Shown piece after piece: positions 20,954 through 32,302 of a stretch of DNA of 64,000 nucleotides. The position numbers and the translations under genes are program-made. Under the pieces are notes generated by a model. It ran no database searches. It had not been told where the DNA came from and saw nothing but the letters and a program-made list of their open reading frames with translations. The DNA is from Acaryochloris sp. CCMEE 5410 (GTDB taxonomy: Bacteria > Cyanobacteriota > Cyanobacteriia > Thermosynechococcales > Thermosynechococcaceae). The DNA lies in contig NZ_AFEJ02000002.1 of the NCBI RefSeq assembly GCF_000238775.2, positions 1,116,001 through 1,180,000 on the forward strand. Direction: 5' to 3'. Numbering within the stretch: position 1 is the stretch's first letter; each line of letters opens with the position of its first letter.

Positions 20954-21685
20954 TTAAACATTAACCAGATTTGTGGCCCTATAGTTAGCGGTCTGGGTAT
21001 AAGCAACAAACGACTTATTTAACCCCAGATACTTCTCTTGATAGATATTAGACTCAGGGAAAAGATTTTGAAATTCATTCTGAGACAATAGACGAATACT
21101 ACTTACTTCATCTACAGCAGCTTGATAGTCCTCAATGGGATTTGTGCGCCAACCCATCGCAAAATTATGGGCAAGCCATGCTCGCATTGAAACCGGCAGA
21201 AATTGAAATAGTGGAAAAGCAAAATGAGGTTCAATCGGGAAGAATTTATTGGGAGTTTGAATAAAGTATCGCTTTCCTAAGCGCTTAACTTCCTGTGCCA
21301 TACGGTGTTGATCATCATAATCTCCAACATGTTCGATGGTGGAATTGGAGAAAACAATATCGAATTGTTGGTCAGCAAACTGAGATAAGTCCCTAGCATC
21401 ACCCGTTACTGATTGAATATTGGTTGATGAAATATTGTGTTTCTCAATATTAACTAAAGTGATAAACAGATCATCCTTGATATCGAACTCAGAGAACATC
21501 ATTTCCCAAAATCCTGGCCTACCACCTATATCAAGGACTTGAATGGGGCGATCAAGTCCCTCAATCATATCCATGAAAATCTGGAATCTTTGGCGACGCA
21601 GCTTATTCGCTACCGAGATTTCATTTTTATTATCTACGAATGTTTTATAGAACATGTCATACCCTTGCACAGGCATAAGCAGCAT
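20954..21685 (-). CDS. Class I SAM-dependent methyltransferase
   Basis: 243 residues. Motif I is IQVLDIGGRPGFWEMMF, the acidic second strand is LVNIEKHN, then SVTGDARDLSQF and the FDIVFSNSTIEHVGD motif of the Methyltransf_11 group. The tail HFAFPLFQFLPVSMRAWLAHNF is seen in methyltransferases of surface polysaccharide or secondary metabolite clusters, but no such cluster is here. Start could be the third Met (MFYKTFVDNK) as well as the first. Substrate unknown. Confidence 0.8.
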   Translation of the reverse strand: MLLMPVQGYDMFYKTFVDNKNEISVANKLRRQRFQIFMDMIEGLDRPIQVLDIGGRPGFWEMMFSEFDIKDDLFITLVNIEKHNISSTNIQSVTGDARDLSQFADQQFDIVFSNSTIEHVGDYDDQHRMAQEVKRLGKRYFIQTPNKFFPIEPHFAFPLFQFLPVSMRAWLAHNFAMGWRTNPIEDYQAAVDEVSSIRLLSQNEFQNLFPESNIYQEKYLGLNKSFVAYTQTANYRATNLVNV

Positions 21686-22043
21686 CTCTAAATTGGTCTA
21701 CATGTGAGTTTTATACCTAATATTTCGGAAGACTCACATATGGATTACAAGAATACTGCAGATACTTATGGCGAAAATTTTCTCGACCATTCTATGCCAT
21801 CACTGACTATTTATTCGTATTTTTCGCAACATCTGAGGTATTAAAAATGTAATATAAATCACATTATTGATTTGAATTTATTTTACTACCTTAAAAAATT
21901 AATACTGGGAAATAATTATTCGTTAGCTATTCATTGCTTCACTAAATTCTAGGCGGATTTTTTCTAGTCTTATCAATAAATACAAATCTTGCTTCTTTTT
22001 CACTAACTCATTAATCGCCTTGACAGATGACTTGAAATATCAA
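21686..22043. other. AT-rich intergenic region
   Basis: About 360 bp of AT-rich DNA upstream of the methyltransferase gene and downstream of the tetR-type gene. No gene, repeat or hairpin stands out. Confidence 0.4.
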
Positions 22044-22717: not shown

Positions 22718-23350
22718 TCACTGAGCCAAATCGCTCTTAAACTCAGGGGTTAAGATGGCCATTCCGGTTTGCACTGCTGGTCTTTGCCCCACTCGCTGTA
22801 GCCAAGCTTGAACATGGGGAAAGAGGTCTAAACTGAGTCCCACATACTCATAGGCAGCCACCCAGGGATAGGTAGCAATATCTGCAATGGAATAATCGCC
22901 AGCAATAAAGTCCCTCTCCTGTAATTGTCGATCTAGAACCTTCACTAGGCGTAACGCTTCTTGTTCATAGCGGTTAATCGCATATTCAATCGACTCTGGA
23001 GCGGATCGGCGAAAATGCCCCAGTTGGCCAAACATCGGGCCGACGCCTGCCATTTGGAACATCAGCCATGCCATCACTTGAGCCCGACTCGCAGCATCAG
23101 TGGGTAATAATTTTCCAGTTTTTTCCGCCAGGTAAATGAGGATGGCACCGGACTCAAAAACGGTCACACCTGTATCTTCATCTTTGATGGCTGGAATTTT
23201 ACTATTGGGATTGAGGGCCACAAATTCGGGACTAAACTGTTCTCCCTTTCCCAAGTCAACTTTGTGTAGGGTGTAGGGCAGCCCTAGCTCTTCCAAGAGA
23301 ATGGCGGGCTTGCGTCCATTGGGGGTTGTATACGTGTAGAGGTGGATCAT
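22718..23350 (-). CDS. Glutathione S-transferase
   Basis: 210 residues with an N-terminal thioredoxin-like domain (IHLYTYTTPNGRKPAILLEE, the cis-Pro of NSKIPAI, and FESGAILIYLAEK for the gamma-glutamyl site) and an all-helical C-terminal domain. The TTPNG opening is typical of YfcG/Ure2p-like bacterial GSTs. Likely role: glutathione conjugation or reduction of electrophiles or peroxides. It sits between PPOX (55 bp) and tetR (92 bp) in a detoxification operon. Confidence 0.92.
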   Translation of the reverse strand: MIHLYTYTTPNGRKPAILLEELGLPYTLHKVDLGKGEQFSPEFVALNPNSKIPAIKDEDTGVTVFESGAILIYLAEKTGKLLPTDAASRAQVMAWLMFQMAGVGPMFGQLGHFRRSAPESIEYAINRYEQEALRLVKVLDRQLQERDFIAGDYSIADIATYPWVAAYEYVGLSLDLFPHVQAWLQRVGQRPAVQTGMAILTPEFKSDLAQ

Positions 23351-23405
23351 GGTAGGCGCTAGGTTATGGGTGGGGGTTGATCGAGAGTCATCGCTGTTCA
23401 GGCTG

Positions 23406-24371
23406 CTAGACCGTCTTTGGCCAGCTACCTGTCTTTTGCAAGAAGGGAGAATACTCTTGAAAGTCAGCCTGAAAAGGTAAGGCTGATTGAAGTAAGAAGC
23501 CTGCTTCCAGTTTGATTTGAATCAGTCGTTCTGCGCCTGCAAAAGACTGCAGATCGTCGCCGTCCCAAATCACGTCGGCCTTGCCCGTCAAGGTCAGCAA
23601 ATCCCCCGTTTGAAAGTTGGGGAACAGGAGTCCGACCCGTGGATCGAGGATCAGGTTACCGATGGTATTGAAAGCCAGATTGCCAGCAAAATCTGGGAAG
23701 GTCAGGGTTTGGGCATCATCCACCCGGATAAACCCAGGCTTACCGCCTCGATGGGAGACATCGACACCATGGGCTAGGTTAGATGTGCTATCGGCATAGC
23801 GAGTGGCAATAAAGAAGGTATCAGCCGATTCAACGACCGCTTGAAGATCTGAATCCAAGGCGTCAACAGCCGTCAATGCCGCCGGGTTCGCTTGTTCAGG
23901 TATAAACTGCACGTCGCGGGTCTGAATATATTGGGGACAGTTGCCAAAGGTTTGTTTTACCTCCACAACAAATCCTGCAGGGGTGATCTGCTGGATCACC
24001 CCATTCATCCGATTGCGGCGTCGGGTGGGGAGTTCGATCCCTAACAGCCCCACATCAGCGCCGACCTTTAGGTTCTGCTGAAGCGGATCCCCTGCGATGG
24101 GTTGAGTTTGAATGCTCAGGGTTTGCGGATCTGGGGAGGAGATAAAACCGGGCTGTCCAGCCACAATTGAGGCCCAAGGACATCCCTTCTGATCAACGCT
24201 ACCCACGAGAAGGAACGGCAGCTGCGGATAAAAGGTCCGATGCTGTTCTGGCAGGAAGTCACGGATAATGCGACGCCCTTGTTTTTCCATGCGATCGCGA
24301 ATCCCATACCGTTCTTGAACCGCCTGTTCTCCCGCATGAAAGGGAGATGTTTCTCTTGTCCAACCTGACAT
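23406..24371 (-). CDS. Pyridoxamine 5'-phosphate oxidase-like flavin-binding protein
   Basis: 321 residues with two split-barrel halves, both of PNPOx-like type: PQLPFLLVGSVDQKGCPWAS near 50-70 and ADTFFIATRYADSTSNLAHG then DVSHRGGKPGFIRVDD near 185-215. Proteins of this size are generally annotated as FAD- or FMN-binding oxidoreductases next to GST genes. They are not vitamin B6 oxidases proper. Substrate unknown. It is the second gene of the VOC-PPOX-GST-TetR operon. Confidence 0.82.
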   Translation of the reverse strand: MSGWTRETSPFHAGEQAVQERYGIRDRMEKQGRRIIRDFLPEQHRTFYPQLPFLLVGSVDQKGCPWASIVAGQPGFISSPDPQTLSIQTQPIAGDPLQQNLKVGADVGLLGIELPTRRRNRMNGVIQQITPAGFVVEVKQTFGNCPQYIQTRDVQFIPEQANPAALTAVDALDSDLQAVVESADTFFIATRYADSTSNLAHGVDVSHRGGKPGFIRVDDAQTLTFPDFAGNLAFNTIGNLILDPRVGLLFPNFQTGDLLTLTGKADVIWDGDDLQSFAGAERLIQIKLEAGFLLQSALPFQADFQEYSPFLQKTGSWPKTV

Positions 24372-24405
24372 AGGGATGACCTCTTCAATTCACTCTAAAA
24401 ACCCA

Positions 24406-24813
24406 TTAACCCGCCGCAATAAATTCCATCCGAATGCCGCCAGGGATGTAGCACATCATGTGGTGCATAGGAGAACCGCCTAGGGACTCGGGGGCAAACT
24501 CAATTTCAACACCTGGGGTCTGAATCAGGGTTTGGTGCAATTCATTTAAGACAGTCAGGCTTTCCATCTTGAGGGCAAAGTGATGCAAGCCAATCACATT
24601 TTTGCGATCAAAAGGGGTGGCCTGTTCTGGATTCATGGCTTGCCACAGAGTAATCATAATCGTGCCGTCGGAAACAAATACAGCAGGGTAATCCGGTTTT
24701 TCACCGACTTGCTTGAAGCCTAGGGTGTCAATAAAGAAGGCCCGAGCCTGTTGGAGATCGGGAACGGTTAATCCGATGTGGTGAGCACCTTGAGTTGCTG
24801 CGGAGTTAGTCAT
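24406..24813 (-). CDS. VOC family (glyoxalase/dioxygenase-like) protein
   Basis: 135-residue vicinal oxygen chelate protein made of two beta-alpha-beta-beta-beta units. Metal-binding candidates are His in GAHHIGLTVPDLQQARAFF, His in VIGLHHFALKM and Glu in GGIRMEFIAAG. It is first in the operon; its start lies 80 bp downstream of the estimated transcription start. Probably isomerises or conjugates a reactive aldehyde, in keeping with the GST and PPOX genes behind it. Confidence 0.85.
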   Translation of the reverse strand: MTNSAATQGAHHIGLTVPDLQQARAFFIDTLGFKQVGEKPDYPAVFVSDGTIMITLWQAMNPEQATPFDRKNVIGLHHFALKMESLTVLNELHQTLIQTPGVEIEFAPESLGGSPMHHMMCYIPGGIRMEFIAAG

Positions 24814-24901
24814 GATGGATTTCCTTAAATTTCAATGAGAGGGATGCCGATACGTATAGAAGATGCTGCTAATGACATATAGTATTGCTTTCGTTAATCT
24901 A

Positions 24902-24930
24902 TTTATACAGACAGGTCTGTCTATTGTCAA
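24902..24930 (-). promoter_or_regulatory. Sigma-70 promoter with palindromic operator in its spacer
   Basis: Read on the minus strand, TTGACA (24925-24930) and TATAAA (24902-24907) are separated by exactly 17 bp. The spacer and edges contain the palindrome TAtACAGAC-AG-GTCTGTcTA (24904-24923). A repressor bound there would block RNA polymerase. The TetR-family gene at the end of the same operon is the natural candidate. The operator half-site ACAGAC resembles those of other TetR-family repressors. Confidence 0.8.
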
Positions 24931-25000
24931 GACAAAAGATGCCACACACCTCCCAAAATGATCATTACCACGGGATGAATGGGTTAAAAATCTACTTATT

Positions 25001-25669
25001 TCAAAATAAATGAGATTGCTTTATGGGGCTTTTGTCAGATTTCTGGAAAAGAGTATTATCAATCCAATCTAGATCTTTTAAACGATGAATAAGGTTCGAG
25101 ATAGTCACTCCCATCTCATCTTTCATTCCATAAAGATCCTTCAATGAATTTAAATTATACTTTGAGCGAATCTTCTCCAAAACATATCGAGGCATAAGTA
25201 AGCAGCTAGAGAAGTATTGGGCTTGCCATTCACGCCAATCTCCATTCTCATCTAAGCTTCTACATAGAAAAGATTCTTCAATTTGTGTAATTCCTGAAAA
25301 ATTTAGTTCTTGTTGCTTAGCATTTCCTTCAACTTCGTCAATATTGATATGAAGGATCCAATGGCCAATTTCATGCCCAATTGTAGATTCACGAAATCCA
25401 TTTTGCCCTGGATCAGACATACTTTCTAAATCTTGGTTTATGATAATAAGCTTCTTAGTCGGAAATATCATAGCGGCAACCACTCCTTCAGAATCAGAAG
25501 GAATGCTTTCAAAATCAAAATCTAATCCTAGATACTCAGCAACATCCATAGTATCTAAAGGCCAAGTTAAAGAAGAATCTCGAGAACTCTCAATTTTCTT
25601 AATAACTTCATTCGCCTTAAACTCAATTTCTGACTTACTTAGGAATGTATAAGGCTTTATGATGCTCAT
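25001..25669 (-). CDS. ImmA/IrrE-type metallopeptidase
   Basis: 222 residues. Zinc-peptidase motif HEIGH at 99-103 in the context STIGHEIGHWILHI, with a downstream segment WQAQYFSSCLLMPRYVLEKI that is typical of DUF955/ImmA proteins. Family members cleave a partner XRE-type repressor after a stress signal. The gene starts two bases after the stop of the XRE gene, so they form a regulator/antirepressor pair. The region is much more AT-rich than its surroundings. Confidence 0.88.
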   Translation of the reverse strand: MSIIKPYTFLSKSEIEFKANEVIKKIESSRDSSLTWPLDTMDVAEYLGLDFDFESIPSDSEGVVAAMIFPTKKLIIINQDLESMSDPGQNGFRESTIGHEIGHWILHINIDEVEGNAKQQELNFSGITQIEESFLCRSLDENGDWREWQAQYFSSCLLMPRYVLEKIRSKYNLNSLKDLYGMKDEMGVTISNLIHRLKDLDWIDNTLFQKSDKSPIKQSHLF

Positions 25670-25671
25670 TG

Positions 25672-26031
25672 CTAATCTATTGAATTAGATTTTCCAATTT
25701 TCCGAATAAAACTATTGGCAAAATTAGGATTTTCTTTCATTTTCCTGAATAAAATACAAGCTTCTTCAGGATTATTCTTTACCAGATCCTCGATCATCTT
25801 TGCATCACTTTGTGTAATTCGGCCAGCTAGATATATTAATTTATCTTGATCTAACTCTAAAGTTTTGGCAATCTGCCTAATAAGTTCTTCAGAAGGAGGA
25901 TGATCAGCTCGATCATTTTCAAGCTTCGATAGGTATGCAAAGTTAATACCCAGCAATGGAGCTAACTGGCGCAAAGTATAGCCACGTTCCTTACGTCTTT
26001 CTCTAATTTGACTGCCAAAGCTGTGTGCCAC
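25672..26031 (-). CDS. XRE-family repressor (ImmR-like)
   Basis: 119 residues. Helix-turn-helix at about 7-61 (SQIRERRKERGYTLRQLAPL then NFAYLSKLENDRADHPPSEE). The C-terminal part is a short helical tail without a sensor domain. It is followed at once by the HEXXH peptidase gene, the usual layout of ImmR-ImmA switches on mobile elements. Probable binding sites are the twin palindromes at 26186 and 26223 in the divergent promoter region, and it may also bind the long palindrome at 26087. Confidence 0.87.
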   Translation of the reverse strand: MAHSFGSQIRERRKERGYTLRQLAPLLGINFAYLSKLENDRADHPPSEELIRQIAKTLELDQDKLIYLAGRITQSDAKMIEDLVKNNPEEACILFRKMKENPNFANSFIRKIGKSNSID

Positions 26032-26086
26032 GTTTACCTCTTTTCCAAAAATATTAGCTTTTAAATATTTCTATAGGGGGCCGAAA

Positions 26087-26127
26087 GAAAGCTTTTAATG
26101 CAGTCAGTGACTACATTAAAAGCTTTC
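26087..26127. repeat. 41-bp near-perfect palindrome
   Basis: Arms GAAAGCTTTTAATG and CATTAAAAGCTTTC (14 of 14 paired) surround a second inner repeat AGTCA-G-TGACT. Only one pair, C-A, fails to match across all 41 bases. It lies 56 bp upstream of the XRE start in the divergent control region. It may be an operator, a recombination site or a cruciform. It lacks a U-tract typical of a terminator. Confidence 0.75.
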
Positions 26128-26185
26128 ACCGTTTTGTTCAAGGATTGAGATTACTCGGTGTGTTGAATAACCATAATACCCAGCA

Positions 26186-26243
26186 TGTTGCCATCTGAAG
26201 GCAACATGCGTTAGGATGCCCGTGTTGCCATCTGAAGGCAACA
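26186..26243. promoter_or_regulatory. Twin operators, TGTTGCC-N7-GGCAACA
   Basis: Two identical 21-bp palindromes (26186-26206 and 26223-26243), each with perfect 7-bp arms and the same 7-base centre ATCTGAA. Start-to-start distance is 37 bp. They lie between the XRE gene (minus) and the first gene of the divergent pair (plus). Identity of the non-palindromic centre suggests recent duplication or selection for the full site. The XRE protein is the natural ligand. Confidence 0.75.
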
Positions 26244-26327
26244 ATATATCTACTATATATAGCGTTTAATTTGCTCAAAAACAAAAAAATACACTTTATG
26301 TAGAATAATAAAGGATCATTAAGCATA

Positions 26328-26651
26328 ATGGGCAGTAGAACAACTAGACCGCAAAAGGGACAAGCAGATCGTGCTTATTCAAGTGGTGTGGCCATAGATA
26401 GTATTACCTCCACTAGCTTTGGAGAAGGTAGAGATGACGGAATTGAAATTCCTTTAGTCAACGTCAATAAAATTGTTTTGAGTGAAACACAAATTGGTGA
26501 ATGTGTTGTTCTGAAAAGATTTGAAGCGAATACTCCTTTTGGGCGACTTGGAGATATCCCTCACAATTACCAAAAGCTAGTTAAAGAAAGAGATTTTAAA
26601 AACGGTGTAGTTTCAAACATCAACATCCCAGCTGTATACTTTCATGGATAA
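26328..26651 (+). CDS. Uncharacterised 107-residue protein of the XRE/ImmA island
   Basis: No family recognised. The N-terminus is polar and basic (GSRTTRPQKGQADRAYSSG), probably disordered. The rest looks like a small compact beta-rich domain (EIPLVNVNKIVLSETQIGEC onward). A weak ribosome site (AAAGGA) precedes the start. The next gene begins immediately after the stop, so both are one transcript. It could be an antitoxin, a substrate or an adaptor for the larger protein; nothing in the sequence decides this. Confidence 0.6.
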   Translation: MGSRTTRPQKGQADRAYSSGVAIDSITSTSFGEGRDDGIEIPLVNVNKIVLSETQIGECVVLKRFEANTPFGRLGDIPHNYQKLVKERDFKNGVVSNINIPAVYFHG

Positions 26652-27806
26652 ATGAGTAACTTCAACAGTTTCTATCAGCCTACTATTTGGGAATCAAAAT
26701 GTTCTATCTGTGAAATTTATGATTCATGTGGAGGTTCGAATAGTGCTCCATGCGGATGTATCAAGACTGGAGATGATCGTTACCATTGCTCTAAATGCAC
26801 TATTTTATGTAAAGAAAGGTGTTCAAGCATAGATAAAAGAGATATTTTTTCTGCGCATGTACGTGATGTCTTAAAGCTGAATGATTTATGTATTAAACAA
26901 GATTTTAATGGCACGAAATATTTCCCATTATTTATACCAACACAAACCCGTCAACTCCCCGAAAACGTATGTCTTTCATGGGCAGGTGTCAGCATAACTG
27001 ATCTAGTTAACAAGAGAAGAAAGCCTCCTGTTAGTACCAAAAAATATCTAAATTCAGATTCTAGTTTTCGTAAAAATTTAAGGATAAATGAACAAAGCAA
27101 TCTAATAGTTATAATGAATAGTCAAGATGATTTATTAGAGCATTTTTGGGCTTCAGATAGAAATGATTTTTACAATTCAATTACTAATAGAATCTTTGCT
27201 GCTTCCGGCCCTACTTTTTCTATTTATAAAGAAACGAAGAATAAGGAAAGAGAGCCTGATTCGCATAAAGTCTTAATGAATATGCGTCAGAATCAAGTTC
27301 TTCAAGAAATGAATAACAAAGGGATAAATGCTATACCTAATATTTATTGGCGGAACAAAAAAGATCGTATGCTTTGGGCCGAATGGTTAAATAAAAACAC
27401 TTCAGTCTGGGCAATATCACGTGATTTTTCTTCAACAAGATCGAGGGATGGAGTTGATTATAAAAATGGGCTTAATTACTTAATAGACATTGTTCGCGCA
27501 GTGAATAGGAGAATGCATATATTTGTAAATGGTATAAGTTATAAAAAAGCTGCTTCAGTCATAGAGAAATTTGCAGAAATAGGATGTACATGTTCTTGCA
27601 TAACTTCAAACCCTATTATTTTAGGTAGAAAAGGTATAAAACTAGAATACCGAGGATCTGACATTCCTGATACTTCTCATCAAGGTAGAGAGATTTTAGC
27701 TAAAGACATAGCTTTTAGCAATATTTGCGTAATGCAAGATTATTTAAATAAATTTTCATCATCATTTAGCATATATTCAGATTCACCTATAATTAGTATT
27801 ATCTAG
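26652..27806 (+). CDS. Cys-rich DUF4417-like protein of unknown function
   Basis: 384 residues. Nine cysteines lie between residues 17 and 57 (CSIC, C26, CGC at 34-36, CSKC at 46-49, C53, C57), suggesting a zinc or iron-sulfur module. The rest alternates strand and helix in a TIM-barrel-like rhythm: IFAASGPTFSIYKE, GINAIPNIYW, VWAISRDF, MHIFVNGISYKKAA, GCTCSCITSNPIILGRKGIK. That layout reminds me of DUF4417-type phage and plasmid proteins, but the link is weak. AT-rich codon use differs from the flanking genes and suggests transfer. Confidence 0.6.
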   Translation: MSNFNSFYQPTIWESKCSICEIYDSCGGSNSAPCGCIKTGDDRYHCSKCTILCKERCSSIDKRDIFSAHVRDVLKLNDLCIKQDFNGTKYFPLFIPTQTRQLPENVCLSWAGVSITDLVNKRRKPPVSTKKYLNSDSSFRKNLRINEQSNLIVIMNSQDDLLEHFWASDRNDFYNSITNRIFAASGPTFSIYKETKNKEREPDSHKVLMNMRQNQVLQEMNNKGINAIPNIYWRNKKDRMLWAEWLNKNTSVWAISRDFSSTRSRDGVDYKNGLNYLIDIVRAVNRRMHIFVNGISYKKAASVIEKFAEIGCTCSCITSNPIILGRKGIKLEYRGSDIPDTSHQGREILAKDIAFSNICVMQDYLNKFSSSFSIYSDSPIISII

Positions 27807-28059
27807 ATAATAGATTTATAATGAGCCCCTTATAGCTAAAATTTAGATAATCTCAATCATTTTTAACACACCTAGATTCTCTTAGTCTTATTGCTGGAAA
27901 CCTAATAAATCTAACAATATAGAAATATCAACCTTAGTAGTTATTATATAAAAATCAATTACCTGCAAAAAATCTACTTAAAAAGTAAAGGATTATATTT
28001 ATTTTATTCAACAATTTATTTATCAGATTGCTTGATTTTAACTATTTTTATTTGATTAA

Positions 28060-28546
28060 CTATTTTTTAGACTTTCGAGCTAATAAAAACTCACTGATCA
28101 AGGTAGATGAATCGGTTTGGACATTCGTCATGCAAATACCTTGCATAGAGCCCAGAACCGCCTCTACTTCTGGCGTACTAAACTCACTATTCGCCATATC
28201 GGGATAACGAAATAAAAGGCGATTCACCTCTTCCTTATTGACGTAGAAATAACCCGAGTTTTGGGGTAAAGATTTCGTCACAGATTGGAACTTATCGCTC
28301 TGATCTAGAGTTTTTTGGGGGCGATTCGCCATAAGTTGAGTAATGGGTTGACCAACGGTCACAAATACCGTGTTGTCATCCAACCACCCCCGCCCAATCA
28401 TGTTTTGGCCTAGGGGGGGAAATTGCCAATGGGTCACCTGCACGTTACCAATCTTACTATTGGCGATCTTGATCTTATTTTGCTGGACAAAGGTATCCAG
28501 TTTGGCAAACGTGGCGGTAGCTTTTTTGCGATCGCATGTCCTATCT
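28060..28546 (-). pseudogene. C-terminal fragment of a DUF3352 protein gene
   Basis: The frame reads DRKKATATFAKLDTFVQQNK near 28440-28535 and continues through VTHWQFPPLGQNMIGRGWLD to the stop at 28060. This is the C-terminal half of a DUF3352 protein, a cyanobacterial family of unknown function often with a signal peptide. Upstream coding sequence stops at about 28546, where foreign DNA begins. The preceding residues are found in the fragment at 30640-30736. Confidence 0.75.
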
Positions 28547-28595
28547 CCTACATGAGACTACCTTTATGATTTTCGAGAGATAAGTAAGCAATGCA

Positions 28596-28638
28596 TATAA
28601 TGTAGGTACATCTCTACATTGGGTGAAGCAGGTGAATA
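28596..28638 (+). promoter_or_regulatory. Displaced promoter, operator and start of the Phd/PIN toxin-antitoxin operon
   Basis: TATAAT (28596-28601) overlaps an inverted repeat AATGTAG-N8-CTACATT (28599-28620), the usual layout of an autoregulated toxin-antitoxin promoter. The GTG at 28623 starts V-K-Q-V-N, the codons that would lead into the antitoxin sequence now at 29951. The IS4-type element inserted at 28639 and separates this leader from its gene. Confidence 0.72.
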
Positions 28639-29950
28639 CCTGACTGCCTGACAGAAGTATCTCAAAGCCTTTATTTTCATAGTCTTTGAGAAAAGAGTGG
28701 AGCGACATGTGAAGCTAGATTTAAGCACAAATCAGCGTTACTCAAATGTCAGGCTCCACCCAAATTTATCGTCAACTGTTCTCCTTTTTACGTCAACACA
28801 GCCATTATCGAGATTTGCGTCATCTCATGACCCTGGGATGGATGGTGAGCGCCTTAATCTGCAGTGAACGATTATGCTTATCTGCTTGGGAATCCTATGT
28901 CCCCTGCCGAGCAAAAAAGCCCAAAGTGTCGAGCGTCGCTGGCAACGCTTTCTGTGCAATCCGCTCATTGATGTCCACAAACTGTATGTCCCTTTGGTCC
29001 TTCTAGCGCTTAAGAACTGGCGAACCCATCGCCTTTACCTAGCGATGGATACCACGGTTTTATGGAATGAATACTGCATGATTCATGTATCCGTTGTCTG
29101 CTGTGGCAGAGCAGTACCGTTGTTATGGAAAGTATTAGAGCACAAGAGTGCGGCGGTTGCTTTGAGGAATATCAACCGCTATTGCGTCAGGCCCGTTGGT
29201 TATTACGGCAGCATCCAGATGTCATGTTGTTAGCAGATCGTGGGTTCGCGAACCATCAACTGATGAGCTGGTTACAGCAGAGCCGTTGGCATTACTGTCT
29301 GCGTATCCCATGTGATGTCCTTCTCCATGGCCCCCGTCAATGTCCAAGAGAAGTCCGTAGGTTATGGCCATCCAAAGGAGAAGCTCTCCTCTACCGTAAT
29401 GTCGGGCTTTGGGATGATGGCCTCTATCGGTGCAATTTGGTACTGGCGAATATCCGAGGCGTAAAAGAACCATGGGCAGTGATTACAGATGAATCACCCT
29501 CGTTACAAACCTTGTGGCAATACGCCTTGAGGTTTCGGGTGGAAGAATTATTCCTCGATAGTAAATCTGGTGTGTTTGAGCTTGAAGAGTCGAAAATTCG
29601 CTGTGCTGATGCTCTGGAGAGGCTGTACCTGATTGCTGCTGTGGCACTGCTATACAGCACGGCTCAGGGGATGGCTGTTCATATTAAAGGGCTACGCCAA
29701 CAGGTTGATCCCCATTGGCACAGAGGCATTAGCTATCTCAAGATTGGATTGCGGTGGCTCAAGGGGGTGGTCCATAAAGGACGGGAGTTGTTGATGCCAG
29801 TCCCCTTATTCACCAAGGATCCGCAACCGTGTTTTGCCTCTAAAAAAGCTCAAAAGAAACACTACAACAAAATCTGGTTCTCTCGTATCCGCTCTCTACA
29901 GTGCAAAGCTTTATGAGCTATGGAATACAAAGATCTGTCAGGCAGTCAGG
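28639..29950 (+). mobile_element. IS4-type insertion sequence
   Basis: 1312 bp bounded by 17-bp perfect inverted repeats (CCTGACTGCCTGACAGA at 28639-28655 and its complement at 29934-29950). Flanking direct repeats GTGAATA lie at 28632-28638 and 29951-29957. The duplication retains the antitoxin GTG-AAT-A on the right side. The single transposase gene is frameshifted, so this copy is probably immobile on its own. Confidence 0.88.
28746..29916 (+). pseudogene. IS4-family transposase with two frameshifts
   Basis: Three consecutive frames make one DDE_Tnp_1 transposase: an N-terminal part from 28746, a middle part (RRWQRFLCNPLIDVHKLYVP, with DTTVLWNEY), and the C-terminal part from about 29150 (LLADRGFANHQLMSWLQQ). 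The IS4 Y-R-E region LWQYALRFRVEELFLDSKSG is intact in the third frame. Shifts fall near 28910 and 29160. I read it as decayed and not as programmed frameshifting, because there are two shifts and no slippery run is obvious. Confidence 0.8.
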
Positions 29951-30202
29951 GTGAATACCTTTTCTAGTCGCGAATTTAATCAAGATGTGAGCAAGGCTAA
30001 ACGGGCAGCGGAGGATGGACCTGTCTTTATCACGGATCGGGGGACGCTAGCCCATGTGTTGTTAACGGTAGAGCAGTATTACAGCCTTGTGCAATCTGCT
30101 GACTCTGTGGCCGATTTGCTGGCAATGCCTGATACTGCTGAAGTTGAGTTTGAGACGGCTCGGAATAAGGATACAACGCTCAGACAAGTGGATCTGGCTT
30201 AA
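29951..30202 (+). CDS. Phd/YefM-type antitoxin, start altered by the IS insertion
   Basis: 83 residues from GTG at 29951 (VNTFSSREFNQDVSKAKRAA). Phd/YefM proteins have this N-terminal TFSSREFNQDVSKAK pattern, a DNA-binding segment and an acidic C-terminal tail that neutralises the toxin. The stop overlaps the toxin ATG by one base (TAATG). The IS4-type element directly upstream removed the native leader; transcription now depends on the element or on readthrough. Translation could also begin further upstream inside the element. Confidence 0.82.
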   Translation: MNTFSSREFNQDVSKAKRAAEDGPVFITDRGTLAHVLLTVEQYYSLVQSADSVADLLAMPDTAEVEFETARNKDTTLRQVDLA

Positions 30203-30630
30203 TGTTTTTGCTCGATACGAATGTTGTATCGGAACTGCGAAAGGTCGGTTCAAAGAATGCTCATCCCCAGGTAGAACTATGGGCCAGGGGGACACCGGGG
30301 GAGCAATCCTATATTTCAGTCATCTCAATCTTTGAGATTGAACGGGGAGTGTTGCTGACAGAACGGCGTGATGCTGCGCAGGGAGCACTACTCCGACAGT
30401 GGTTTGATCATCATGTGCTCGATAACTATGCAGAGCATATCTTGCCCGTTCATTCCCAAGTCGCGCTGCGTTGCGCGAGGCTCCATGTCCCGGATCCGAT
30501 GCCTGCTTACGATGCACTGATTGCGGCTACAACACTGGTGCATGGTTTGACGCTGGTAACTCGAAATGTCAGTGACTTTGAGCGGACTGGGGTAGAGATT
30601 ATTAATCCTTGGGAGTTTGGTCGTGGGTAG
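30202..30630 (+). CDS. VapC-type PIN domain ribonuclease toxin
   Basis: 142 residues with all PIN acidic positions: Asp in MFLLDTNVVSELRK, Glu in ISIFEIERGVLL, Asp in PAYDALIAATTLVHG and the final Asp in LVTRNVSDFERTG. VapC toxins cut specific tRNAs or rRNA. It is paired with a Phd/YefM antitoxin and not with VapB, a common hybrid arrangement. If the displaced promoter silences the antitoxin, both genes should be silenced together. Confidence 0.88.
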   Translation: MFLLDTNVVSELRKVGSKNAHPQVELWARGTPGEQSYISVISIFEIERGVLLTERRDAAQGALLRQWFDHHVLDNYAEHILPVHSQVALRCARLHVPDPMPAYDALIAATTLVHGLTLVTRNVSDFERTGVEIINPWEFGRG

Positions 30631-30639
30631 AGCCATTCG

Positions 30640-30736
30640 GCTTGGCACAAGTATTCAGCTTGGTAAACGTGGCGGTCGCTTTTTTGCGATCGCTCGTATC
30701 AAACACCAACGCGCCTCCAAAGCCAACGGATTCTAG
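30640..30736 (-). pseudogene. Internal fragment of the DUF3352 gene
   Basis: Reads LESVGFGGALVFDTSDRKKA then TATFTKLNT on the minus strand before the frame ends in unrelated sequence; an upstream TAG lies at 30737-30739. Its last part repeats the start of the 28060-28546 fragment. If the repeated 29 bp are collapsed, the two pieces form a continuous DUF3352 sequence. The N-terminal half of the gene is missing. Confidence 0.65.
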
Positions 30737-30793
30737 CTAAAGTCTTCCTGTTTGCCTCAAAGCACTGAACAAATTTGCCGAGAGATAAAACCA

Positions 30794-32302
30794 TCACAAG
30801 GCTTTGCGGTTTAACTTACCCAAGGACGTGTAGGGAAGGGCTTGGCGAAACTCAATCACAGCAGGCATTTGATAGCGAGCCACCCGTGGCTTTAGCCATG
30901 CTAAGACCGTGGATTGCTCTAAATTCTCAGCAGGCTTGGGGATAATAATCGCTTTCAGTCGCTGACCAAACTCTGGATCAGGAATCCCCAGAACCACTGC
31001 TGCCTCAATCCCTGGATGTTGGAGCAGCACATTTTCCAGTTCCAGGGGATAAACATTCTCCCCCCCAGACACAATCATGTCATCCACCCGACCACCCAAA
31101 AAGATATTCCCTTCCCCATCTCGATAAGCCAAATCTCCCGTTTCTATCCACCCTTTTCCTCCCGCAGACCAGGCACTGCGGATACAAAGCTGCCCTTTTC
31201 CCGAGGGTCCATCCGGCTGAATCTGGACCTGAACCCCGGTAATCGGTTGGCCAATGGACTCTGGCTGCTTTTGCAACAGCTCTGGATCCGCCAAGATACA
31301 AAACCCCGCTTCAGACGTGCCGTAGAGGTTAAACAACACTGGCCCGAGCTGCTCTAGGGTGGCTTGGGCCAACGCGGGTCGCAGGGCTGCCCCTCCCGTG
31401 AGGATGCGCTGGAGGGAAGACAAAGCCTGGGCATTATGGTTGAGCATCCGCCGCAGCATCAACGGCACCAGGGTAATCACCTCAATGTTGTCTTGGGCAA
31501 TCAGGTCACAGGCCCGACTAGCATCAAATCGGCGAGTGAAATACTGTTGCGCCCCCAAAGTCACCCCAATTAACAGGGCCGCTAACCCAAAGCCGTGATA
31601 AATCGGGGTGGCGATATACACCGTGCGATACCGATCCAAATGAACCTGCGAGAGTAGGGCAATAAAGGGAGGCAGGAAATCAAAAACGGAGGGCTTACGA
31701 CTGGCGGGTTTCGGTTGCCCCGTCGTGCCTCCCGTCATCACCACCACTTTCCCCGTCTTCACTTTACGCAGCGGTGTGGGGGTGGAGGGAGGCGTCACCG
31801 CCATCCGATCCACAGAATTGCTGGAAGGATCATAGGTGGGCATCGCTTTATGGCTTAGGGAAAGGTCATCAACTACCGAAGCAAGTTCTGGATCATAGAT
31901 GTAGTAGTCAAACTGAATCTGATGTTCCATGGCCCGAATTTGATCTGCACTCATCTCGGGATTGACCAGAAACACATCAGCCCCTAATCGGGAGACGGCA
32001 AAAATGGCTTTGATGGCTGCGGCATGGTTCCGAGCTGCGATCGCAACCCTCTGTCGAGGCTGAATTCCACACTCTTTAGACAATCCAACTGCAACCGCCT
32101 CTGCCTGTTGCCATAGCCTGGAATAGGTTAATTCTTCCTGGTCATCAATCACAGCAATCCGCTCTGGATGCAGCTTGGCCGCAATCCGCAACAAAGCCAT
32201 CAAGTTGACTCCCGTCGTCCAGATCGCTTCCAGCAAACGATATAGACCAACAAAGGTTAGCAGACGCGTCCGATGCAGTTTTTTCAGCAGGGAAAAAATC
32301 AT
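30794..32302 (-). CDS. AMP-dependent acyl-CoA synthetase/ligase
   Basis: 502 residues of the ANL superfamily. P-loop VVMTGGTTGQPKPAS, the A5 motif LYGTSEAG, TGDLAYRDGEGNIFLGGRVDD, then MIVSGGENVYPLELE and the catalytic Lys in the C-terminal PYTSLGKLNRKAL. It probably activates a fatty or other carboxylic acid to its CoA thioester; the exact acid is not predictable. A ribosome site GGAGAC precedes the start. It lies 4 bp after the SDR gene, so the two are one operon, perhaps for lipid or wax metabolism. Confidence 0.9.
   Translation of the reverse strand: MIFSLLKKLHRTRLLTFVGLYRLLEAIWTTGVNLMALLRIAAKLHPERIAVIDDQEELTYSRLWQQAEAVAVGLSKECGIQPRQRVAIAARNHAAAIKAIFAVSRLGADVFLVNPEMSADQIRAMEHQIQFDYYIYDPELASVVDDLSLSHKAMPTYDPSSNSVDRMAVTPPSTPTPLRKVKTGKVVVMTGGTTGQPKPASRKPSVFDFLPPFIALLSQVHLDRYRTVYIATPIYHGFGLAALLIGVTLGAQQYFTRRFDASRACDLIAQDNIEVITLVPLMLRRMLNHNAQALSSLQRILTGGAALRPALAQATLEQLGPVLFNLYGTSEAGFCILADPELLQKQPESIGQPITGVQVQIQPDGPSGKGQLCIRSAWSAGGKGWIETGDLAYRDGEGNIFLGGRVDDMIVSGGENVYPLELENVLLQHPGIEAAVVLGIPDPEFGQRLKAIIIPKPAENLEQSTVLAWLKPRVARYQMPAVIEFRQALPYTSLGKLNRKAL

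What the first reader, a model, noticed from the sequence alone, without database searches (positions are those of the whole stretch)
25001..27806. AT-rich XRE/ImmA island driving an unfamiliar two-gene unit
An ImmR/ImmA-type switch is divergent from a 107-residue orphan protein and a 384-residue Cys-rich protein. Nine cysteines within 41 residues, a TIM-barrel-like rhythm and distinct base composition make the larger gene stand out. ImmA/ImmR pairs usually control mobile element or defence genes, so the cargo may be a defence or DNA-modifying system. No integrase, phage structural gene or att site was seen.
Basis: partly seen in the sequence, partly recalled or inferred. Interest (0 to 1): 0.68.

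Follow-up and report, generated by a model that had tools for sequence, protein, structure and literature searches.

The report
Inducible DUF4417 gene pair, likely defence
A small foreign island in a cyanobacterium carries two uncharacterised genes next to a known type of damage-sensing gene switch; a similar gene pair occurs in distant bacteria, often beside known virus-defence systems, so it is a good candidate for an unrecognised defence module.

Summary
In detail: an XRE + ImmA (M78 peptidase) pair at 25001-26031 diverges from a gapless two-gene unit, a 107-aa orphan and a 384-aa protein with nine Cys in 41 residues. The 384-aa protein is a divergent relative of DUF4417 with a predicted TIM barrel. 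A small gene followed by a Cys-DUF4417 gene recurs in 8 of 8 opened non-actinobacterial loci, though the small proteins are only weakly alike. The controller changes: XRE/ImmA in 2 loci, STAS plus GHKL-ATPase genes, like the published DNA-damage controllers CapS/CapK, in 6. In 4 of 5 Rhizobiales loci PADLOC finds defence genes nearby (Gabija; Kiwa+Shos; Mokosh; Hma). Two identical 21-bp palindromes between the divergent genes, unique in the 8.1-Mb genome, look like operators. Two congeners lack the island. I read it as a damage-inducible, probably anti-phage, two-gene effector. The barrel looks most like tRNA-guanine transglycosylases and the DNA preQ0 insertase DpdA, suggesting DNA-base chemistry, but sequence tests do not confirm this and the window copy lacks the expected catalytic acid. 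Function is untested.

The parts
25001..25669 (-). ImmA/IrrE-type M78 metallopeptidase (222 aa), CapP-like sensor protease
   Evidence: Pfam PF06114 E 4e-07; PADLOC capP E 1.8e-15; HExxH motif
25672..26031 (-). XRE/Cro-CI type repressor (119 aa), CapH-like
   Evidence: Pfam HTH_3 E 3.1e-11; PADLOC capH E 3.3e-12
26087..26127 (.). 41-bp near-perfect inverted repeat in the divergent region, candidate second operator or regulatory hairpin near the XRE start
   Evidence: only match in the window; 0 in 100 shuffles
26186..26206 (.). 21-bp palindromic repeat TGTTGCC-N7-GGCAACA, candidate operator copy 1 (overlaps the only promoter-like match, which is no more than chance)
26223..26243 (.). identical 21-bp palindromic repeat, candidate operator copy 2; exact matches to the pattern occur only at these two sites in the held 8.1-Mb genome
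26328..26651 (+). 107-aa orphan; a small gene (107-121 aa) stands at this place in 8 loci, with weak sequence similarity
   Evidence: no Pfam, PADLOC, NCBIfam or PHROG match; no plasmid match at E up to 1
26652..27806 (+). 384-aa Cys-rich protein: N-terminal 8-9 Cys module plus DUF4417-like predicted TIM barrel (about residues 110-318)
24938..28408 (.). stretch absent from congener G005 (257 unaligned bases there instead), i.e. the likely acquired island
   Evidence: congener G003 lacks 24932-30793

Best explanation
The island is a probably horizontally acquired, inducible two-gene effector module of immune type. Shown by sequence: an XRE repressor and an ImmA protease face the effector pair across 296 bp with two identical palindromes unique in the genome, and the same arrangement of a small gene plus a Cys-DUF4417 gene is kept in other bacteria while its controller is swapped. 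Inferred: the XRE protein binds the palindromes and silences the pair; DNA damage or infection activates ImmA, which cuts the XRE protein; the pair is then expressed. Inferred, weaker: the Cys-rich protein is a metal-binding (zinc or Fe-S) TIM-barrel enzyme acting on nucleic acid, most likely exchanging or removing bases in DNA as TGT/DpdA enzymes do, with the small orphan as its partner (adaptor, inhibitor or specificity subunit), and the outcome is damage to invader DNA or shutdown of the infected cell.
For: Small gene plus Cys-DUF4417 gene, overlapping or at most 12 bp apart by the ORF starts used, in 8 of 8 opened non-actinobacterial loci. Two unrelated damage-sensing controllers: XRE+M78 in 2, STAS-like plus GHKL ATPase in 6, the latter like CapS/CapK, which derepress immune operons on ssDNA (PMC13373217: abstract, sections 7 and 14 and passages read). 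PADLOC defence genes nearby in 4 of 5 Rhizobiales loci: GajA/GajB; KwaA/KwaB with ShosT/ShosA; MkoA/MkoB; HmaC/HmaB; annotated NACHT in the fifth. Palindromes. Island absent in the 2 informative congeners of 3 fetched. TIM-barrel model; the 50 rows listed by VIA-align are all TGT or DpdA (Z 9.4-10.6). ParB is the nearest annotated upstream plus-strand gene in 5 of 6 actinobacterial relatives opened, and ParB-DUF4417 fusions occur in phages (PMC12704722, passages), resembling ParB near DpdA in two phages and DpdB (ParB-like) with DpdA in Dpd systems (PMC12839542, passages).
Against: No phage assay. No background rate of defence genes beside random plasmid genes was computed. The orphan's homology is weak: BLASTP E 5e-4 between window and Salinibacter; tblastn in plasmids finds nothing with the window orphan at E up to 1 and, with the R. 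etli orphan at E up to 0.1, only R. etli and S. alkalisoli, not the other three Rhizobiales. GHKL matches pass the Pfam cut-off in 1 of 5 scanned, STAS in 1 of 5. Salinibacter and Planctomyces show no defence neighbour by annotation; PADLOC was run on one Salinibacter neighbour only, on none in Planctomyces, and not on the window's other neighbours. Chemistry is weak: Foldseek alone puts other barrels first (best E 4.9e-03), TGT first at rank 27; TGT entries are very many in the PDB (recalled), so 50 rows are not 50 independent hits; the phage DUF4417 model ties TGT (Z 8.5) with PdxJ/TrpA (7.8-7.9); 9 of 60 shuffles reach the DpdA score of the Cys family and 2 of 60 that of phage DUF4417, against 0 of 60 for the DpdA-TGT control. 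At the column I match to the TGT nucleophile the 6 STAS-controlled members have Asp (4) or Glu (2), but window, Salinibacter and actinobacteria have Ser/Thr and SAR324 has Ala (my reading). The Cys module has pLDDT of about 50 or less.
Confidence: 0.47

Rival explanations
1. Self-marking: the Cys-DUF4417 enzyme modifies the DNA of the mobile element that carries it, so as to escape host restriction, as DpdA does in phages. The XRE/ImmA switch then times transfer or replication, not defence.
For: DUF4417 relatives are common in phages (490 phage records) and are fused to ParB there (PMC12704722 suggests anti-defence or phage-host roles, passages). Actinobacterial members sit on plasmids, in 3 of 6 opened loci downstream of ATP/GTP-binding and replication-relaxation family genes.
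Against: No preQ0-synthesis or conjugation gene is among the annotated or Pfam-scanned genes beside the window island or between the genes of the STAS/GHKL units (the Aminobacter unit does lie next to a trb conjugation cluster). Rhizobiales loci are in defence neighbourhoods.
Confidence: 0.2
2. Toxin-antitoxin-like module: the Cys-rich protein is a toxin, the orphan its antitoxin, with XRE/ImmA or STAS/GHKL as transcriptional or direct controllers (compare VapK-VapS-VapC in PMC13373217).
For: The small gene is first and overlaps or nearly touches the large one in all 8 opened loci; damage-type controllers; a PIN gene with an antitoxin-like ORF (by eye) lies nearby in the window and, by eye, beside the SAR324 relative.
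Against: The orphan is poorly conserved and three orphans scanned have no DNA-binding domain by Pfam. The six actinobacterial loci opened have no such gene upstream.
Confidence: 0.2
3. Remnant of an ICE or prophage: the XRE/ImmA pair is the element's immunity switch and the two genes are incidental cargo or decaying accessory genes.
For: AT-rich block absent from two congeners, with an IS-like transposase next to it; ImmR/ImmA pairs control ICEs such as ICEBs1 (recalled).
Against: No integrase or structural gene among the 10 window proteins scanned; frames are intact and the arrangement recurs across phyla with other controllers.
Confidence: 0.1

Closest known systems
CapH + CapP and CapK + CapS controllers of immune operons (CBASS, Bub and others; PMC13373217)
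   Same: XRE + M78 peptidase here; STAS-like plus GHKL ATPase in six relatives, whose STAS proteins share an invariant Ser and a TAWNNRL motif in a C-terminal wHTH-like part in 6 of 6 (not aligned to CapS itself). Controllers lie directly beside the effector genes.
   Different: The effectors are not CBASS or Bub. The GHKL gene follows the effector genes in 5 of 6 loci, whereas capK is immediately followed by capS; Pfam finds no N-terminal HTH in the 5 scanned GHKL proteins. DUF4417 is not among the operons listed in the sections read.
DUF4417 (PF14386) phage proteins, incl. ParB-DUF4417 fusions
   Same: Colinear barrel motifs (D159, W166, F189, S190, P202, P229, W233 invariant in 38 sequences).
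   Different: Below the Pfam cut-off; adds an 8-Cys N-terminal module and a C-terminal extension; lacks the HFFLDD strand motif; preceded by a small partner gene.
DpdA / tRNA-guanine transglycosylase
   Same: Best structural matches of the model; ParB partner parallel.
   Different: No significant sequence-profile match; no acid at the presumed nucleophile column in the window copy; Cys cluster N-terminal, whereas the TGT zinc site is C-terminal (recalled).
TGT-containing BREX-related capture systems and Dpd systems (PMC12839542, passages)
   Same: They already place TGT-type enzymes in predicted or known defence loci.
   Different: Those are large multi-gene systems (PglZ, HerA/FtsK and others, or the Dpd cluster); here two genes plus a controller.

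Membership tests
CapH/CapP-type XRE-ImmA controller | XRE-type HTH protein | tested here: met
   HTH_3 E 3.1e-11, PADLOC capH E 3.3e-12; other XRE models also match
CapH/CapP-type XRE-ImmA controller | M78 metallopeptidase with HExxH | tested here: met
   PF06114 above cut-off, capP E 1.8e-15, GHEIGHW
CapH/CapP-type XRE-ImmA controller | palindromic operator beside the controlled genes | tested here: inconclusive
   two identical 21-bp palindromes, unique in the genome, but binding not tested
CapH/CapP-type XRE-ImmA controller | cleavage of the repressor on DNA damage | not testable with these tools
   needs experiment
DUF4417 (PF14386) | Pfam gathering score 28.9 bits | tested here: not met
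   19 bits, E 0.0011
DUF4417 (PF14386) | significant profile-profile similarity over the core (kinship, not membership) | tested here: met
   hhalign Prob 97.5, E 7.6e-12, 126 columns; E 3.6e-09
TGT/DpdA superfamily | TIM barrel resembling TGT/DpdA | tested here: inconclusive
   Z 9.4-10.6 for the 50 listed rows, but only a second look at Foldseek's hits and mean pLDDT 63
TGT/DpdA superfamily | sequence-profile similarity | tested here: not met
   9 of 60 shuffles reach the score (Cys family), 2 of 60 (phage DUF4417); control 0 of 60; profiles shallow
TGT/DpdA superfamily | catalytic Asp at the end of strand 7 (recalled) | tested here: not met
   Thr in window; Asp in 4 and Glu in 2 of the 6 STAS-controlled members (my reading)
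CapS (for the relatives) | STAS domain | tested here: inconclusive
   of 5 scanned, DUF4325 above cut-off in R. etli, below it in Aminobacter and Planctomyces, absent in R. phaseoli and CB3090; all 6 align with each other
CapS (for the relatives) | conserved Ser and C-terminal wHTH | tested here: inconclusive
   an invariant Ser and TAWNNRL in 6 of 6, wHTH by my reading, not aligned to CapS; CB3090 has a weak Penicillinase_R match (E 0.019) in that part
Known defence systems in PADLOC | match of orphan or Cys-DUF4417 to a PADLOC model | tested here: not met
   no match for the window orphan and Cys-DUF4417, the Salinibacter orphan, or the R. etli orphan and Cys-DUF4417

The most novel reading that the evidence does not exclude
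Cys-DUF4417 proteins are TGT/DpdA-fold enzymes that act as inducible immune effectors, exchanging or excising guanine-type bases in invader (or host) DNA, with a dedicated small partner, plugged behind interchangeable DNA-damage controllers (XRE/ImmA, STAS/GHKL).
Probability: 0.22. Interest if true: 0.85.

Novelty: new variant of a known kind. Interest (0 to 1): 0.62.

Why it matters
If right, this adds an effector pair, for which I found no description, to the set of immune modules that share exchangeable DNA-damage controllers, and gives a functional handle on DUF4417, a domain common in phages and fused there to ParB. A base-exchange or base-excision effector in a two-gene inducible unit would differ from the nucleases, NADases and pore formers that dominate known systems (recalled).

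Tried and rejected
Radical SAM: the Cys spacing does not contain the CX3CX2C signature (recalled), and radical SAM rows in BFVD are weak; rejected. Phage morphogenesis or housekeeping: nothing convincing for the 384-aa protein in Pfam, NCBIfam or PHROGs (a head maturation protease PHROG at E 0.06 is chance level). ParB-like fold for the orphan: no support; PDB profile hits of the orphan alignment are chance-like. Direct sequence proof of TGT/DpdA kinship failed; my profiles are shallow (25 TGT; 6 DpdA sequences, two nearly identical; one four-residue fragment was still in the profile and dropped). Viral and phage homologues of the Cys form: none found (the IMG/VR scans look only for short peptide patterns). 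BFVD search: mostly unnamed or unrelated; a phage DpdA (Sonali) at rank 16, E 0.072.

Not opened or dropped: SAR324 locus L006 is left out of the arrangement count because its contig starts inside or just before the gene. Two of three Aminobacter plasmids, and all but three of the Streptomyces records, were not opened. Congener G004 gave no alignment on the island side. The S. alkalisoli STAS and GHKL proteins were not scanned with Pfam; the STAS name there is the record's.
Full report
What is there. At 25001-26031 on the minus strand sit ImmA and XRE, at 26328-27806 on the plus strand the 107-aa orphan and the 384-aa Cys-rich protein, with zero bases between the last two. GC falls to 0.30-0.37 over 25001-28000. 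XRE and ImmA match HTH_3 and Peptidase_M78 and, in PADLOC, capH and capP (the same proteins also match other XRE/M78 models).

Island and promoter. Of the six congeners searched, three have the neighbouring glyoxalase gene; I fetched all three and two are informative: G005 aligns to 23377-24937 and resumes at 28409, with 257 bases between; G003 aligns to 22942-24931 and resumes at 30794, with 84 bases between. So the four-gene block was gained here or lost there. The protein was found in 1 of 29 genomes of the family, 1 of 386 of the phylum and, with a profile, 1 of 388 of the class, in each case only the window's own genome. The 296-bp divergent region holds two identical 21-bp palindromes with starts 37 bp apart and a 41-bp near-perfect inverted repeat. 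Exact matches to the palindrome pattern occur only at those two places in the held genome, control pattern 0; the 41-bp repeat matches once in the window and never in 100 shuffles. The one promoter-like match there is not above chance (1 found, 1.4 expected). The Salinibacter divergent region shows only one short inverted repeat.

The Cys-rich protein. Pfam gives only a sub-threshold DUF4417 match. Plasmid tblastn found 36 records, best Salinibacter ruber pSR56 at 35% over 92%; a Rhizobium query found 38. Profile-profile comparison of 15 Cys-type proteins with 38 phage DUF4417 proteins gives E 7.6e-12 over 126 columns. Aligned with phage DUF4417, D159, W166, F189, S190, P202, P229 and W233 are invariant. 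An AlphaFold2 model from 38 sequences has mean pLDDT 63, with residues 131-320 mostly at 69-91 (one dip to 56) and the Cys module at about 50 or less. It shows the alternating strands and helices of a TIM barrel. The 50 rows that VIA-align lists are all TGT or DpdA, Z 9.4-10.6; DpdA 7ui4 has Z 10.4, 195 residues, 4.4 A. Foldseek itself is non-committal: best E 4.9e-03 to other barrels, TGT first at rank 27. A confident model of a phage DUF4417 protein (pLDDT 90.6) also has TGT first (Z 8.5), but PdxJ and tryptophan synthase are tied, and TGT appears only from rank 22 in Foldseek. Sequence profiles do not prove the kinship (9 of 60 shuffles reach the score for the Cys family and 2 of 60 for phage DUF4417; DpdA-TGT control 0 of 60). 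In the phage DUF4417 case the best local alignment puts HFFLDDYQF on DpdA's IFLDSGAF, a lead, not a test.

The pair and its controllers. In Salinibacter a fused XRE-M78 protein is divergent from DUF2188, a 117-aa orphan and the Cys-DUF4417 protein. The RefSeq gene there starts late; the frame is open from 5935 of L002. In Rhizobium etli, Sinorhizobium alkalisoli, R. phaseoli, R. sp. CB3090, Aminobacter and Planctomyces SH-PL62 the order is STAS-like protein, small gene, Cys-DUF4417, with a GHKL ATPase gene alongside: same strand and next in R. phaseoli, CB3090 and Aminobacter, convergent in R. etli and S. alkalisoli, upstream in Planctomyces. Of five STAS proteins scanned one passes the DUF4325 cut-off, two match below it, two do not match; of five GHKL proteins scanned one passes the HATPase cut-off and four match below it at E 1e-4 or better. 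The STAS proteins align throughout and share an invariant Ser and a TAWNNRL motif in a C-terminal wHTH-like part in 6 of 6 (not aligned to CapS). The small proteins are the weak point: the eight share an MG start and little else that is firm; window against Salinibacter gives BLASTP E 5e-4, R. etli and S. alkalisoli are 80% identical, but the R. etli query did not find the other three Rhizobiales at E up to 0.1 and the window query found nothing at E up to 1. The STAS/GHKL layout resembles CapS and CapK, published as DNA-damage controllers of immune operons, with CapH+CapP as an alternative pair (PMC13373217: abstract, sections 7 and 14 and passages read). That paper's held text does not contain the word DUF4417.

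Neighbours. PADLOC finds GajA and GajB near the R. etli unit, KwaA, KwaB, ShosT and ShosA near that of S. alkalisoli, MkoA and MkoB near CB3090's, HmaC and HmaB near Aminobacter's. R. phaseoli has an annotated NACHT protein with only a partial PADLOC match. Planctomyces and Salinibacter show none by annotation; one Salinibacter neighbour was scanned, without a match. I did not compute how often random genes on such plasmids have defence neighbours.

Actinobacterial relatives. Six loci were opened. ParB is the nearest annotated upstream plus-strand gene in five of six (in one with a minus-strand IS110 between); Euzebya has none. None has a like-placed small gene upstream; the small downstream genes of four of them look unrelated to the orphan by eye. 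ParB also lies next to, or one small gene from, phage DpdA in Sonali and Hilltopfarm, and DpdB is described as a ParB-like ATPase whose activity serves DpdA insertion, dispensable in some clusters (PMC12839542, passages read). The same paper predicts TGT enzymes in BREX-related capture systems, so a TGT in defence is not new as such. Phages carry ParB-DUF4417 fusions (PMC12704722, passages read).

Reading. The facts favour an inducible effector pair of immune type whose damage sensors are interchangeable. That it defends against phage is inferred from neighbours and controllers. That it works on DNA bases is inferred from fold and the ParB parallel and is weak: the column that I match to the TGT nucleophile has Asp in four and Glu in two of the STAS-controlled members, but Thr in the window, Ser or Thr in Salinibacter and actinobacteria, and Ala in SAR324 (my reading). 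Searches behind the statement that I found no description of this system: DUF4417: 3 papers; DUF4325: 2 papers; 0 papers; 280 papers hold two of the terms, 12 listed; listing only. The held library lacks most subscription papers.

Noticed in passing
window 29834-30630: PIN-domain (VapC-like) gene with an antitoxin-like ORF (by eye) beyond the island; the stretch 29950-30640 is 94% conserved in congener G005, which lacks the island. By eye the SAR324 relative also has a PIN/antitoxin-like pair beside its DUF4417 gene (L006 1150-1768).
   Followed up: partly
window 28060-28443: C-terminal fragment of a DUF3352 protein (profile positions 415-535 of 536), probably a broken gene at the island edge.
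   Followed up: partly
window 28746-29916: IS-like DDE transposase in overlapping frames; absent from G005 at that site.
   Followed up: partly
window 20954-21685: Class I methyltransferase gene near a second AT-rich dip (GC 0.36 at 21001-22000).
   Followed up: no
L030 and L031 9198-10097: The database annotates a sense ORF that lies antisense to a GHKL ATPase gene on the other strand; the annotation is probably wrong. The same place downstream carries Kiwa in one plasmid and Gabija in the other, a likely defence hotspot.
   Followed up: partly
G036:C69:1567-2457 and G055:C1:3451566-3452126: Second, divergent TGT-like matches in long open frames (620 and 728 codons) in two cyanobacteria, possible DpdA-type or other TGT homologues.
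   Followed up: no
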